DNA from: Brevibacterium senegalense | GTDB lineage: Bacteria > Actinomycetota > Actinomycetes > Actinomycetales > Brevibacteriaceae | Assembly (NCBI GenBank): GCA_020743695.1 | Contig: DYUK01000017.1 | Span: 1 to 34,099 of the forward strand | Length of the DNA: 34,099 nt | Direction: 5' to 3' | Part shown: positions 5,204 to 15,801 of the stretch, piece by piece | Layout: every line of letters begins with the position of its first letter | Position numbering within the stretch: position 1 is the first letter of the stretch | Translations under genes and position numbers: made by a program | The notes under the pieces: generated by a model | Databases searched by the model: none | Seen by the model: only the letters and a program-made list of their open reading frames with translations | What the model was told of the DNA's origin: nothing

Positions 5204-6769
5204 TCACTGCAGGGCGGAGGTGAGCCGCATCGCGGAGTCCAGCCACCGGCGACCCCACGACCGTCCGGCCCACTCCTCCTGCGTCAGCTCGGAGCTGACG
5301 GCGCGGTACTCGTCCATGACGGCGTGGAGGCCCTGCGTGATGTCGCCGCCGTAGGCCAGCATGCTCACCTCGTAGTTGAGCCCGAACGACCGCATGTCCA
5401 TGTTCGACGAACCCATGACGGAGCACAGGTCGTCGACCGTGAAGCACTTCGTGTGGAGGACCCGTGGAGCCGGGTAGCGGAAGATCCGCACGCCCGCCTC
5501 CAGCAGCGCCTCGTAGTACGAGCTCTGGGCGTGGTCGACCATGAACTGGTCCGCCTGTTCGCTCACGTACAGCTCGATGTCCACGCCCCGGCGCCCGGCG
5601 GTCGTGATCGCCGCCAGCAGTGACTCGTCGGGGACGAAGTAGGGGCTCACGATCCGCAGCCGCTCCTGCGCCAGGTAGATGAGCGACACGAAGAGCCGCA
5701 GGCTGGGTTCGGTGCGGAAGCCCGGCCCGGATGGGACGACCTGCACCGCGTTCACATCCGAGTCCGGCAGGACGGAGGTGACCGCGCCGCCGCCCGCGCC
5801 GTGCGTGCCCTGCCCCGTCGTGAGTCGCGCACCGATCGCGGACTCCCGCTCCGCCAGTCGCGCGTCCGCGTCGTAGGCGCGGATCGTGAGGTCCTCGCCC
5901 GTCTCCGTGAACCAATCGGTCACGAAGACCGCCTCGAGCGAGGCGACGACGGGTCCGGTCAGCTCGACCATGATGTCGTGCCAGTGGCGGCCGATCCGAT
6001 CGTTGCGCGGGCTGCCGTAGGAGGGCTCGATCATGTTCATCGATCCCAGGAACGCGCGCTCCCCGTCGATGATGACGTGCTTGCGGTGGTTGCGCAGGTC
6101 GATCCTGCGGACCCGGCCCTGCAGCGGCTTGAAGGGCAGCATGAGCGACCACTCGATCCCCGCGGCGTCCAGTCGGCGCTTGAGCGGCCGGTACCCGCGG
6201 TACTTCCGGGATCCCAGATGGTCGAACAGCACGCGCACGCTCACGCCGCGAGCGGCCGCGCGCTCCAGCGCCGCGAGGAACGGTTCCGTCGACCGGTCCG
6301 CGGTCATGATGTACATGCAGACGTCGACGTAGGTCTCCGCCTCGTCGATCGCGCGCACCATCGCGTCGACGGTGTCGTGGAAGTCCGTGCGGATCCCGTG
6401 GTCGGTGCCCGTGACCATCGGCAGGTGGGTGAGGTTCCGGCTGAGGGTCACGAGCGACCCGAAGTCCCGTGGGACGTCGATCGCGTCCGGCCAGTCCGGG
6501 ATGCCGACCGTGCCCTGGTGCAGGCGAGAGTTCGCCTCCTCCTGGATCGCCTCCCGCCTGCCCGTGATGTAGGGGCTGCCCAGCAGCAGGAACAGCGGGA
6601 TGCCCACGATGGGCAGGAAGAGGATGAGCAGCAGCCACGCGCTGGACGACGACGGGCGCCGGTTCTCCGGCACCACCCCGATCGCGATGATCTTGATCGT
6701 GTAGTCCAGGACGATGAAGGCCGTCGACGCGATCTGCGCCCAGTCCCACTCCCCCAGTGCCAGCTCCAT
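5204..6769 (-). CDS. cls: Cardiolipin synthase (two PLD domains)
   Basis: HRKHVIIDGERAFLGSMNM and HTKCFTVDDLCSVMGSSNMDMRSF HKD motifs; N-terminal TM hairpin with PLDc_N-like sequence. Confidence 0.92.
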   Translation of the reverse strand: MELALGEWDWAQIASTAFIVLDYTIKIIAIGVVPENRRPSSSSAWLLLILFLPIVGIPLFLLLGSPYITGRREAIQEEANSRLHQGTVGIPDWPDAIDVPRDFGSLVTLSRNLTHLPMVTGTDHGIRTDFHDTVDAMVRAIDEAETYVDVCMYIMTADRSTEPFLAALERAAARGVSVRVLFDHLGSRKYRGYRPLKRRLDAAGIEWSLMLPFKPLQGRVRRIDLRNHRKHVIIDGERAFLGSMNMIEPSYGSPRNDRIGRHWHDIMVELTGPVVASLEAVFVTDWFTETGEDLTIRAYDADARLAERESAIGARLTTGQGTHGAGGGAVTSVLPDSDVNAVQVVPSGPGFRTEPSLRLFVSLIYLAQERLRIVSPYFVPDESLLAAITTAGRRGVDIELYVSEQADQFMVDHAQSSYYEALLEAGVRIFRYPAPRVLHTKCFTVDDLCSVMGSSNMDMRSFGLNYEVSMLAYGGDITQGLHAVMDEYRAVSSELTQEEWAGRSWGRRWLDSAMRLTSALQ

Positions 6770-6808
6770 GGAGCCAGCCTACGCAGGCCGCCCACCCCGC
6801 GCACTCCC

Positions 6809-6858
6809 ACACGAACAGTGCTCGCAACTACTCTAAAATTGTTAGAGTAGTTGCGAGC
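6809..6858 (+). repeat. Flanking element, left copy: acacgaacagtGCTCGCAACTACTCTAAaattgTTAGAGTAGTTGCGAGC (arms 6820-6836 / 6842-6858, 5-nt spacer)
   Basis: 17-bp perfect inverted repeat (18 with T6819/A6859); direct-repeat copy at 8381-8430 with 2 mismatches in 50 bp. Confidence 0.95.
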
Positions 6859-6891
6859 ATTGAGACAGTTCCGGCCCACGAGAGGCGACCG

Positions 6892-8346
6892 ATGACGATC
6901 TCCGACGTGAATCACGCTCTGAGTCAGCCCGCGCACCACGTCGCGAGCACACTCGTCGACCTGCCCGAGACGCAGTGGTTCGACCGGAAGTCTGCGAGGA
7001 TCCAGGCGAAGAAGCTGGCGGAGACCCTCGTTGCGATGGGCAATGCGGAGGGAGGCGTCGTCGCCGTCGGGCTGAGCGATGGAGTCATCGAGCACGTGAC
7101 CGACGACCAGGCCAACGCGCTGCGGCAGGCCGCGATCGATTTCACGCAGCCCCCGGTGCGCGTGAGGGCGGAGGAATGCCTCACCCCGCCCCCGGAGGAA
7201 GATGAACAGGACCATCCCCACGACCCGACGCCCCGTCGCACACTCCTCCTCCACGTCACGCCCGGGGAGACGCTCCACGAGATGTCGGACGGGATGTGCT
7301 TCCTCCGCATCGGCGACGAGACGCGCCGACTCACCCATGCGCAGCGGCAGGAGCTCTTCTACGACAGGAGCGACAGCTCGTACGACAGCACGCCGAATCC
7401 ATCGATCACGATCGACGACCTCGATGCTGAGGCGATCGGCGAGTTCCGGACTGCAGTCGGCGCGCAGGCGCCTGTTGAGCACCTGCTCACGTCGCGCGGC
7501 CTTGTCGCGGGCTCCGGAGCCCCCACGGTCGCCGCGACCCTCCTGTTCCACCCTGCACCGCAGGGCCTTCACCCCCACGCGCACGTGCGTGTGCTCCGCT
7601 ACCTGAGCGACGAGCGGGGCAGCGGCGCGGGGCTGAGCCTCGAGGACGACGGAGACGTCCGGATCGACGGCCCGATCCCCGCGGTCATCGACCGCGCGGC
7701 GGAAGAGGTCGCGGCACGCGTCCCTCGCCGCCGGGCCCTGGGAACATCCGGGCGCTTCGATCCCGTGCCGGTGATCCCCCGGGACGCGTGGCTCGAAGCA
7801 CTCGTGAATGCGGTCGTCCACCGCTCCTACAGCATGGCGGGCGACCATATCCGGATCGAGATCTTCCCGACCCGGATCGAGGTCACCAGCCCCGGCCGAT
7901 TCCCGGGGATCGTGGACGTCGACGCACCGCAGTCGATCACCCGATATGCGCGCAATCCTCACATCGCACGCGTCTGCGCCGATCTGCGGATCGGACAGGA
8001 ACTGGGTGAGGGGATCCGCCGCATGATGGACACGATGGCTGCGGCCGGGCTGGCGGGACCCAGCTTCCGACAGACCGCATCCCATGTGGTCGTGACGCTG
8101 TCCGCGCACGGACTCCTCGACGAGGAGACGGTCGCCCGACTTCCGTCCGGAGCGGTGGAGGTGCTGGCGATCCTGCAACGGGCCGACACTCCGCTGGGCA
8201 CCGGCGCCATCGCCGAGGCCGCAGGCATCGCGCGACCCACCACCCTCCGCCGCCTGCGAGCCCTCGAGACAGAGGGCCTGGTCCACTGGGACGCAGAATC
8301 CGCGAAAGATCCGCGCGCTGTCTGGCGCCCCGCACCGGGCCGATGA
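6892..8346 (+). CDS. ATP-binding transcriptional-regulator-like protein: AlbA_2 (Schlafen/AAA_4) domain + HATPase_c_4 + C-terminal winged helix
   Basis: N-term ETQWFDRKSARIQAKKLAETLVAMGNAEGGVVAVGLSDG (AlbA_2); EALVNAVVHRSYSMAGDHIRIEIFPTRIEVTSPGRFPG...RNPHIARVCADLRIGQELGEGIRRM (HATPase_c_4); C-term AVEVLAILQRADTPLGTGAIAEAAGIARPTTLRRLRALETEGLVHW (wHTH). AGAGG-like RBS 6 nt before ATG 6892. Confidence 0.85.
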   Translation: MTISDVNHALSQPAHHVASTLVDLPETQWFDRKSARIQAKKLAETLVAMGNAEGGVVAVGLSDGVIEHVTDDQANALRQAAIDFTQPPVRVRAEECLTPPPEEDEQDHPHDPTPRRTLLLHVTPGETLHEMSDGMCFLRIGDETRRLTHAQRQELFYDRSDSSYDSTPNPSITIDDLDAEAIGEFRTAVGAQAPVEHLLTSRGLVAGSGAPTVAATLLFHPAPQGLHPHAHVRVLRYLSDERGSGAGLSLEDDGDVRIDGPIPAVIDRAAEEVAARVPRRRALGTSGRFDPVPVIPRDAWLEALVNAVVHRSYSMAGDHIRIEIFPTRIEVTSPGRFPGIVDVDAPQSITRYARNPHIARVCADLRIGQELGEGIRRMMDTMAAAGLAGPSFRQTASHVVVTLSAHGLLDEETVARLPSGAVEVLAILQRADTPLGTGAIAEAAGIARPTTLRRLRALETEGLVHWDAESAKDPRAVWRPAPGR

Positions 8347-8380
8347 CCCCGGCGTCAGCCCAGGCATCCCACGCGCCCCT

Positions 8381-8430
8381 ACACGAACAGAGCTCGCAAC
8401 TACTCTAAAATTGTTGGAGTAGTTGCGAGC
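8381..8430 (+). repeat. Flanking element, right copy: acacgaacagaGCTCGCAACTACTCTAAaattgTTGGAGTAGTTGCGAGC
   Basis: Arms 8388-8408 / 8414-8434 (21 bp with one T/G mismatch); same orientation as the left copy, offset 1572 bp. Confidence 0.95.
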
Positions 8431-8458
8431 TCTGCGACCCCGTCCGGCCCGGGCTCGC

Positions 8459-8542: not shown

Positions 8543-9736
8543 TCACAGCCCCAGGGAGCGGGCGATGAGCATCTGCTGCACCTCGGTCGTGCCCTCGCCG
8601 ATCTCCAGGATCTTCGAGTCGCGGTAGTGGCGGGCGACCAGGTACTCGTTCATGAATCCGTAGCCGCCGTGGACCTGGGTCGCGTCGCGCGCGTTGTCCA
8701 TCGCGGCCTCGGACGCGACCATCTTCGCGATCGCCGCCTCCGTCTTGAACGGCAGGCCGGACTCCATCTTCGAGGCCGCCGCGTAGTAGGCGGCGCGCGC
8801 GGTCTGCACGCGGGCCTCCATGCGGGCGATCTTGAAGCTGATGCCCTGGTAGTCGCCGATCGGCTTCCCGAACGTCGTCCGCTCCTTCGCGTACTGCACG
8901 CTCGCGTCGACGCAGCCCTGCGCCGCGCCCACGGACACCGCCGCGATCGCGATGCGGCCCTCGTCCAGGATCCGCAGGAAGTTCGCGTAGCCGCGCCCCC
9001 GCTCACCCAGCAGATTCGCCTCCGGCACCCGGACGTCCTCGAACGTGAGCGGGTGCGTGTCCGACGAGTTCCAGCCCACCTTGTCGTAGGCCGGCTCCGG
9101 CGTGAACCCGGGCGTCCCGTTGGGGATGATGATCGTGGAGATCTCCGGCTTCGTGCTGCCGTCGCTGCCCGTGCGCGTGCCGGTGACGGCGGTCGCGGTC
9201 ACGAACTTCGTGATGTCCGTCCCGGAGTTCGTGATGAACGACTTCGCCCCGTTCACCACCCACTCGCCGTTCTCCAGCACCGCCCGGGTGCGGGTGCCGC
9301 CGGCGTCGGAGCCGGCCTCGGCCTCGGTGAGTCCGAACGCGGCCAGCCCGCGGCCGTCGATGACCTGCGGCAGCAGCTGGGCCTTCTGCTCCTCAGTGCC
9401 GAACCGGTAGATGGGCATCGCACCCAGCGACACGCCCGCCTCGAGCGTCATCGCGAGCGACTGGTTCTCCCGCGCGATCTCCTCCAGTGCCAGGCACAGG
9501 GCGAAGTAGTCCCCGCCCATGCCGCCGTGCTCCTCCGGGAACGGCAGGCCGAACAGGCCCATGTCGCCCATCTTCGCCACCAGCTCGTACGGGAACTCGT
9601 GCTTCGCGTCGAGCTCCGCGCTGACCGGTGCGACCTCCTCGTCCGTGAATTCCGCGACCGTGCGCCGCAGCGATTCGTACTCGTCGTCGAGCATCCCCGG
9701 AACGAACGTCCTCATCGTCCTCGCCTCCTGTGTCAT
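8543..9736 (-). CDS. Acyl-CoA dehydrogenase (FadE19/isovaleryl-CoA dehydrogenase-like)
   Basis: AFGLTEAEAGSDAGGTRT, FGKPIGDYQGISFKIARMEARVQTARAAYY, DATQVHGGYGFMNEYLVARHYRDSKILEIGEGTTEVQQMLIAR. Start may be Met at 9715. Confidence 0.93.
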   Translation of the reverse strand: MTQEARTMRTFVPGMLDDEYESLRRTVAEFTDEEVAPVSAELDAKHEFPYELVAKMGDMGLFGLPFPEEHGGMGGDYFALCLALEEIARENQSLAMTLEAGVSLGAMPIYRFGTEEQKAQLLPQVIDGRGLAAFGLTEAEAGSDAGGTRTRAVLENGEWVVNGAKSFITNSGTDITKFVTATAVTGTRTGSDGSTKPEISTIIIPNGTPGFTPEPAYDKVGWNSSDTHPLTFEDVRVPEANLLGERGRGYANFLRILDEGRIAIAAVSVGAAQGCVDASVQYAKERTTFGKPIGDYQGISFKIARMEARVQTARAAYYAAASKMESGLPFKTEAAIAKMVASEAAMDNARDATQVHGGYGFMNEYLVARHYRDSKILEIGEGTTEVQQMLIARSLGL

Positions 9737-15662: not shown

Positions 15663-15761
15663 GGCGCCTCCTCTCCATCCGGGTTCACCTCTGATCGTAG
15701 TGAACTCCGGTGCGTTCCGGCAGGCCCGCCGCGCCGCGCGAGACATCCACGCGCACATGGC

Positions 15762-15794
15762 GGAAGCCCCGTCACCAGCGGTGACGGGGCTTCC
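15762..15794 (-). terminator. Hairpin downstream of tRNA-Thr: GGAAGCCCCGTCACC-agc-GGTGACGGGGCTTCC
   Basis: Perfect 15-bp arms with 3-nt loop, immediately 3' of the minus-strand tRNA; no obvious U tract. Confidence 0.75.
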
Positions 15795-15801
15795 GGGGCT
15801 G

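What the first reader, a model, noticed from the sequence alone, without database searches (positions are those of the whole stretch)
6796..8450. AlbA_2/HATPase regulator gene bracketed by two near-identical 50-bp palindromic elements
Positions 6809-6858 and 8381-8430 share 48/50 bases and the same orientation. Each contains a 17-bp-arm palindrome (GCTCGCAACTACTCTAA-aattg-TTRGAGTAGTTGCGAGC). They enclose exactly one gene, an AlbA_2 + HATPase_c_4 + winged-helix protein. Weaker similarity continues on both sides (upstream CCC..CGC.C.CC, downstream TCCGGCCC), so the duplicated unit may be ~75-80 bp. No transposase or integrase is visible. Inference: either a self-contained mobile cassette whose ends are these palindromes (mobilised in trans), or a regulator with operators at both ends of its own gene acting by looping or insulation. 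AlbA_2 proteins are widespread but mostly uncharacterised.
Basis: partly seen in the sequence, partly recalled or inferred. Interest (0 to 1): 0.82.

Follow-up and report, generated by a model that had tools for sequence, protein, structure and literature searches.

The report
Mobile Schlafen gene between matching palindromes
A lone bacterial Schlafen-type gene, probably an anti-phage RNase that represses itself, sits between two near-identical DNA palindromes that its own protein apparently reads, and it is gained and lost as a small cassette across Actinomycetota; the protein type is known, but I found no description of this two-ended layout.

Summary
In detail: two palindromes (48/50 identical, arms of about 20 bp) bracket one gene, and they are the only copies in the genome. 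The gene (SLFN_AlbA_2, GHKL-type ATPase and winged-helix domains) has orthologues scattered over many Actinomycetota orders and in two temperate phage groups. In 77 of 88 loci a TACTNNAA-N5-TTNNAGTA palindrome covers the promoter. In 32 of 88 the half-site recurs at least twice just after the stop codon (0 of 957 control windows). Direct repeats flank 34 of 88 genes (6 of 277 shifted controls). One recognition-helix residue tracks one half-site base, upstream (p=7e-11) and downstream (p=6e-7), so the encoded protein most likely binds both ends. The cassette lies in unrelated surroundings with homology ending near the palindromes. Relatives show an empty site, a clean 54-bp duplication around an insertion, and lone palindromes where the gene is gone. 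Best reading: an autorepressed, horizontally moving, defence-type Schlafen cassette gained and lost as a unit; how it moves is open. The protein architecture is already described as a BREX-associated effector; the bracketing is the new part.

The parts
6784..6866 (+). upstream copy of the flanking direct repeat (R), 83 nt
   Evidence: D4, 83% identity to 8356-8438
6816..6862 (.). upstream palindrome; core TACTCTAA-AATTG-TTAGAGTA at 6829-6849; probable promoter-operator
   Evidence: conserved in 77/88 relatives
6843..6848 (+). TAGAGT, -10-like hexamer inside the right arm (inferred promoter)
   Evidence: TA(G/C/A/T)AGT hexamer at this place in 72 of 77 relatives; not found by the sigma-70 consensus scan
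6892..8346 (+). gene for the 484-aa Schlafen (SLFN_AlbA_2) / HATPase_c_4 / winged-helix protein
6967..7332 (+). SLFN_AlbA_2 domain (residues 26-147), E26 and D/E31 conserved
   Evidence: SLFN11/13/14 fold match
7840..8100 (+). HATPase_c_4 (GHKL-type) domain, residues 317-403; invariant E302/N306 just upstream
8152..8292 (+). winged helix (residues 421-467); residue 452 tracks the half-site base
8356..8438 (+). downstream copy of the flanking direct repeat (R)
8388..8434 (.). downstream palindrome, core TACTCTAA-AATTG-TTGGAGTA at 8401-8421
5204..6769 (-). conserved upstream neighbour, PLD-type cardiolipin synthase-like gene; used to find empty and solo sites
8543..9736 (-). downstream neighbour, acyl-CoA dehydrogenase gene; adjoins the cls gene without the cassette in G037 and G054

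Best explanation
This is a one-gene accessory cassette. Its product is a Schlafen-type protein (probable RNase domain, GHKL ATPase module, winged helix) that binds CTACTNNAA half-site palindromes. One palindrome covers the promoter and gives autorepression. A matching one lies just after the stop codon, inside a duplicated flanking segment. The cassette spreads horizontally, also inside temperate phages and islands, enters new sites with duplication of a stretch of target, and can be lost by recombination between the flanking repeats, leaving a single palindrome. Its job is most likely phage defence by RNA cleavage. Shown by sequence: the bracketing, the covariation of binding residue and site, the changes of context, the empty and solo sites and one clean target duplication. 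Inferred: repression, nuclease activity, defence, the route of movement and the role of the downstream copy.
For: Bracketing: half-sites within 100 bp of start (1.74 per locus) and stop (1.0 per locus) against about 0.01 per 100 bp elsewhere; two or more downstream in 32/88 loci against 0/957 windows. Same reader at both ends: the half-site base agrees up- and downstream in 30/36 loci, and residue 452 small (G/A/S/T) goes with base G, large with C: 13/0 against 3/46 upstream, p=6.7e-11; 12/0 against 2/17 downstream, p=6.4e-7. Autoregulation: palindrome at the promoter in 77/88, gap of 5 in 75, start codon 5 nt after it in 44. Not a regulon: in 20 carrier genomes 14 of 15 palindromes lie beside this gene. 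Unit: gene pairs 77-92% alike in unrelated contexts share sequence only to about the outer edge of the palindromes (L122/L128, L127/L139, L090/L092). Gain: Demequina sp. SYSU T00192 (L143) has a 2.8-kb insertion holding the gene between two exact 54-bp copies of a sequence that is single in a gene-free relative. Loss: the cls locus in seven Brevibacterium species shows gene with two copies, lone palindrome twice, and empty; the tree fits repeated loss. Direct repeats flank 34/88 genes against 6/277 shifted controls and 3/39 Fic genes. Phages: Gordonia Nymphadora group and Mycobacterium Squirty carry it near the integrase. Fold: after the uncharacterised DIP2311, Schlafen N-domains are the best matches.
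Against: 50 of 88 loci have no downstream half-site and 54 have no flanking direct repeat. Some repeats are host-gene ends without the motif, so flank repeats may have more than one origin. Carrier genomes almost always have one copy, unlike an active transposon. The L143 insertion also carries another gene, so the cassette alone did not make that event. The third Schlafen catalytic acid is not strictly conserved (D63 in 23/40, E/D67 in 38/40). The window's immediate neighbours are housekeeping-type genes, not defence genes. Relatedness among loci inflates the p values.
Confidence: 0.7

Rival explanations
1. Regulator only: the two palindromes are paired operators of a non-mobile autoregulated gene that loops or insulates its own transcription unit; flank repeats and context changes are ordinary genome turnover.
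For: Covariation of residue 452 with both ends; operator over the promoter in 77/88; palindromes only beside this gene.
Against: Does not explain repeats of up to 208 bp around 34/88 genes, an exact 54-bp target duplication, or lone palindromes where no such gene remains in the genome.
Confidence: 0.2
2. Self-mobilising element: the encoded protein synapses its two palindromic ends and cuts DNA through the AlbA_2 domain, making this a new kind of mobile element.
For: Protein apparently reads sites at both ends; unit boundaries near the palindromes; catalytic-type E26 and D/E31 kept in 40/40.
Against: No known recombinase fold; nearest tested relatives cleave RNA (PMC5862951); nearly single copy; many members lack the downstream end; duplications vary from 24 to 208 bp, unlike a transposase.
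Confidence: 0.13
3. Passive target duplication: host recombination or phage and island integration carries the gene in, and the repeats are att-like or homologous segments unrelated to the protein. This concerns only the route of movement and is compatible with the rest of the best explanation.
For: Repeats in L025, L103, L107/L111, L108 and L143 look like ends of host or integrase genes (my reading of their sequence); the L091 repeat reads as a tRNA 3' end; phage copies lie by integrases.
Against: Does not by itself explain why the downstream copies contain the protein's own binding motif, with matching specificity.
Confidence: 0.3
4. The palindromes are bidirectional terminators or a dispersed REP/MITE repeat that happens to flank the gene.
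For: Long hairpin potential.
Against: No T-tract and not called as a terminator; only two copies in the genome; motif specific to this gene family.
Confidence: 0.04

Closest known systems
[quoted passage not shown]
   Same: Same domain order: Schlafen/AlbA_2, GHKL ATPase, winged helix.
   Different: Here it stands alone between a cls and an acyl-CoA dehydrogenase gene; neither flanking palindromes nor repeats turned up in the papers searched. The preprint itself could not be read.
Mammalian Schlafens (SLFN11, SLFN13, SLFN14)
   Same: N-terminal fold match; two acids five residues apart as in SLFN13 E205/E210 are conserved.
   Different: Third catalytic acid not strictly kept; has GHKL and wHTH parts; no nuclease activity tested.
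DIP2311 of Corynebacterium diphtheriae (PDB 3lmm)
   Same: Best full-length structural match and sequence match.
   Different: About 20% identical, function unknown; its locus was not examined.
REP sequences with RAYT transposases
   Same: A single gene bracketed by palindromes read by its product.
   Different: REPs are dispersed in many copies and RAYT is a Y1 transposase; here two copies and no such domain.
Solo-LTR formation
   Same: Loss by recombination between flanking direct repeats leaves one repeat, as inferred for G054 and G001.
   Different: No retroelement; the analogy is to the outcome only.

Membership tests
Bacterial Schlafen-HATPase-wHTH effectors | SLFN_AlbA_2 N-terminal domain | tested here: met
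   Pfam 42.6 bits over cut-off 25.3; fold match
Bacterial Schlafen-HATPase-wHTH effectors | GHKL-type ATPase module followed by winged helix | tested here: met
   HATPase_c_4 73 bits, HTH_IclR 37 bits
Bacterial Schlafen-HATPase-wHTH effectors | conserved Schlafen catalytic acids | tested here: inconclusive
   E26 40/40, D/E31 40/40; third position D63 23/40 or E/D67 38/40
Bacterial Schlafen-HATPase-wHTH effectors | anti-phage activity by RNA cleavage | not testable with these tools
   needs phage challenge and nuclease assay
Bacterial Schlafen-HATPase-wHTH effectors | linkage to BREX or other defence genes (common, not strictly defining) | tested here: not met
   immediate neighbours are cls and acyl-CoA dehydrogenase; the wider window was not scanned for defence genes
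REP/RAYT elements | palindromes dispersed in many genomic copies | tested here: not met
   two copies, both beside the gene
REP/RAYT or IS200/IS605 elements | Y1 (HUH) transposase in the unit | tested here: not met
   only SLFN, HATPase and HTH domains found
Classical DNA transposon / IS | short target duplication of fixed length | tested here: not met
   duplications range from 24 to 208 bp
Classical DNA transposon / IS | multiple copies in some genomes | tested here: inconclusive
   single copy in nearly all; G190 has two, sisters on the tree but each on a long branch
Integron cassette | attC site and integron integrase | not tested
   no dedicated search was made

The most novel reading that the evidence does not exclude
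The Schlafen/AlbA_2 protein itself moves its gene by bringing together the two end palindromes it binds: a new class of single-gene mobile element, with long variable target duplications and solo-palindrome scars, whose enzyme doubles as repressor and defence nuclease.
Probability: 0.13. Interest if true: 0.93.

Novelty: new variant of a known kind. Interest (0 to 1): 0.68.

Why it matters
Schlafens link animal antiviral defence with bacterial immunity, but how the bacterial versions are controlled and spread is little known. This gives a binding-site code (residue 452 against one half-site base) that predicts the operator of many uncharacterised members, and a cassette layout that makes gain and loss of a candidate defence gene directly visible in genomes. 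The lone palindromes could serve as markers of past defence genes. If the protein also drives movement, it would be an unprecedented kind of mobile element.

Tried and rejected
Rfam search gave only chance matches. Dispersed repeat rejected. Terminator reading rejected for lack of a T-tract. Exact-core scan of GTDB contigs found nothing, because the arms drift and only the half-site is conserved. Plasmid search found only one distant hit. A sigma-70 consensus promoter was not found, so the -10 is inferred from conservation only. The wider PF13749 family shows direct repeats in 11/60 genes, not significantly above the Fic control (3/39, p=0.24), so I do not claim the layout for the whole superfamily, although a few distant members show it with other motifs. 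A first parse of recognition helices misread some rows and was redone. Foldseek against viral structures was not run.

Full report
OBSERVATION. The two elements are real and as described. 6809-6858 and 8381-8430 share 48 of 50 bases; the palindromes span 6816-6862 and 8388-8434 and lie in an 83-nt direct repeat. They are unique in the host genome. Between them lies one 484-aa gene with SLFN_AlbA_2, HATPase_c_4 and winged-helix domains. The host is a Brevibacterium, inferred because the same-genus genome G034 and the named Brevibacterium contig L085 share contig length and gene position.

RELATIVES. Only one other of 60 family genomes carries a true orthologue (69% identity, G034/L004). In it the gene is again flanked by a direct repeat, 208 bp at 95%, with related palindromes but otherwise different sequence. 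Orthologues occur in 25 of 396 genomes of the order, over 19 genera, and in 80 named loci across Actinomycetota. The gene tree interleaves host orders: 26 label changes against a minimum of 12, shuffled mean 40.6. This fits horizontal transfer but does not prove it.

BRACKETING. Over 88 de-duplicated loci, TACTNNAA half-sites are concentrated within 100 bp of the start codon and of the stop codon, about 100-fold above the surroundings; 32 loci have two or more within 250 bp downstream, against none of 957 control windows. At the promoter 77 of 88 have the palindrome with a 5-nt centre in 75; a TANAGT-like hexamer sits in the right arm in 72, and the first start codon follows 5 nt later in 44, which suggests a leaderless promoter overlapping the operator (the leaderless reading is from general knowledge of Actinobacteria). 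In the window the start codon lies further away, 42 nt after the right arm. In 20 carrier genomes, 14 of 15 strong palindromes lie beside the gene, so there is no sign of a wider regulon.

WHO READS THE SITES. The fifth base of the half-site is C in most loci and G in others, and agrees upstream and downstream in 30 of 36. Residue 452 in the recognition helix is small (G/A/S/T) in 13 loci, all with G; with other residues the base is C in 46 and G in 3 (p=6.7e-11). Against the downstream sites the counts are 12/0 and 2/17 (p=6.4e-7). Relatedness inflates these values, but both states occur in several parts of the tree, for example L097 against L090/L092 and L062 against L113. This is the strongest sign that the encoded protein itself binds both ends.

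MOVEMENT. Gene pairs in unrelated surroundings share sequence only from about the upstream palindrome to the end of the downstream palindrome: L127/L139 -33 to +49, L122/L128 -83 to +50, L090/L092 to +53. Direct repeats flank 34 of 88 genes, against 6 of 277 shifted intervals (p=4e-18) and 3 of 39 Fic genes (p=3e-4). In Demequina an insertion holding the gene lies between two exact 54-bp copies of a sequence that is single in gene-free relatives; that insertion also holds an 85% copy of the neighbouring gene's 3' end and a further reading frame. At the cls locus of Brevibacterium, G000 and G034 have gene and two copies, G054 and G001 a lone palindrome and no such gene, G037, G015 and G055 neither. 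On the cls tree these states are scattered, which fits an ancestral cassette with repeated loss, although several key branches have only 86-94% support. The outer arms of the G054 palindrome differ from the window's in a mostly paired way, which fits maintained symmetry.

FUNCTION. The AlphaFold model (mean pLDDT 91) matches Schlafen N-domains, GHKL kinases and ArsR/MarR winged helices; its best match is the uncharacterised DIP2311. Two Schlafen acids are kept in all 40 sequences aligned, the third only loosely (SLFN13 residues from PMC5862951). A 2026 paper describes the same domain order as an RNase effector widely linked to BREX and cites a preprint on anti-phage bacterial Schlafens (PMC12839542). 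Orthologues in temperate phages lie near the integrase; in Squirty beside a RelA/SpoT-like gene, in a region shared with cluster-N-type phages, where prophage-expressed defence genes are known (my knowledge). Defence is therefore the likeliest role, untested.

WHAT IS OPEN. Whether movement is driven by the protein, by phage or island integrases, or by host recombination is not settled. Half the family lacks the downstream copy. The wider AlbA_2-HATPase family shows the layout in a few members with other motifs (L006, L297, L268), but not significantly overall.

Noticed in passing
L143 3933-6696: 2.8-kb insertion in Demequina sp. SYSU T00192 bounded by an exact 54-bp duplication of a terminator-like sequence; besides the Schlafen gene it holds an 85% copy of the upstream gene's 3' end and a second reading frame.
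   Followed up: partly
L188 4001-5437 and L189 4001-5431: Phage orthologues (Squirty gene 31, Nymphadora gene 38) are annotated 'DNA helicase' or RecG-like, as is PHROG 12156; they are Schlafen-HATPase-wHTH proteins.
   Followed up: yes
L297 (G061:C1:2217900-2224100): Distant relative (26% identity) bracketed by 148-bp repeats (97%) built of a different motif, AACAACTTTGAAACAACTT, at both ends.
   Followed up: partly
L006/L251 and L268: Other distant relatives whose own upstream motifs (CTTCCCACTTAA; AGAGTGTAA) recur after the stop codon, suggesting subfamily-specific brackets.
   Followed up: partly
L025 and L108/L124: Flank repeats that look like duplicated 5' ends of neighbouring genes (uvrA-like in L025), as if insertion kept the gene start intact.
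   Followed up: no
L107/L109/L111: Near-identical cassettes downstream of tyrosine-recombinase gene ends, with what reads as a tRNA-Pro gene downstream in L111, inside larger differing islands.
   Followed up: partly
window 15761-15795: A further near-perfect palindrome (16-bp arms, GC-rich), unrelated to the bracket motif; possibly a terminator.
   Followed up: no
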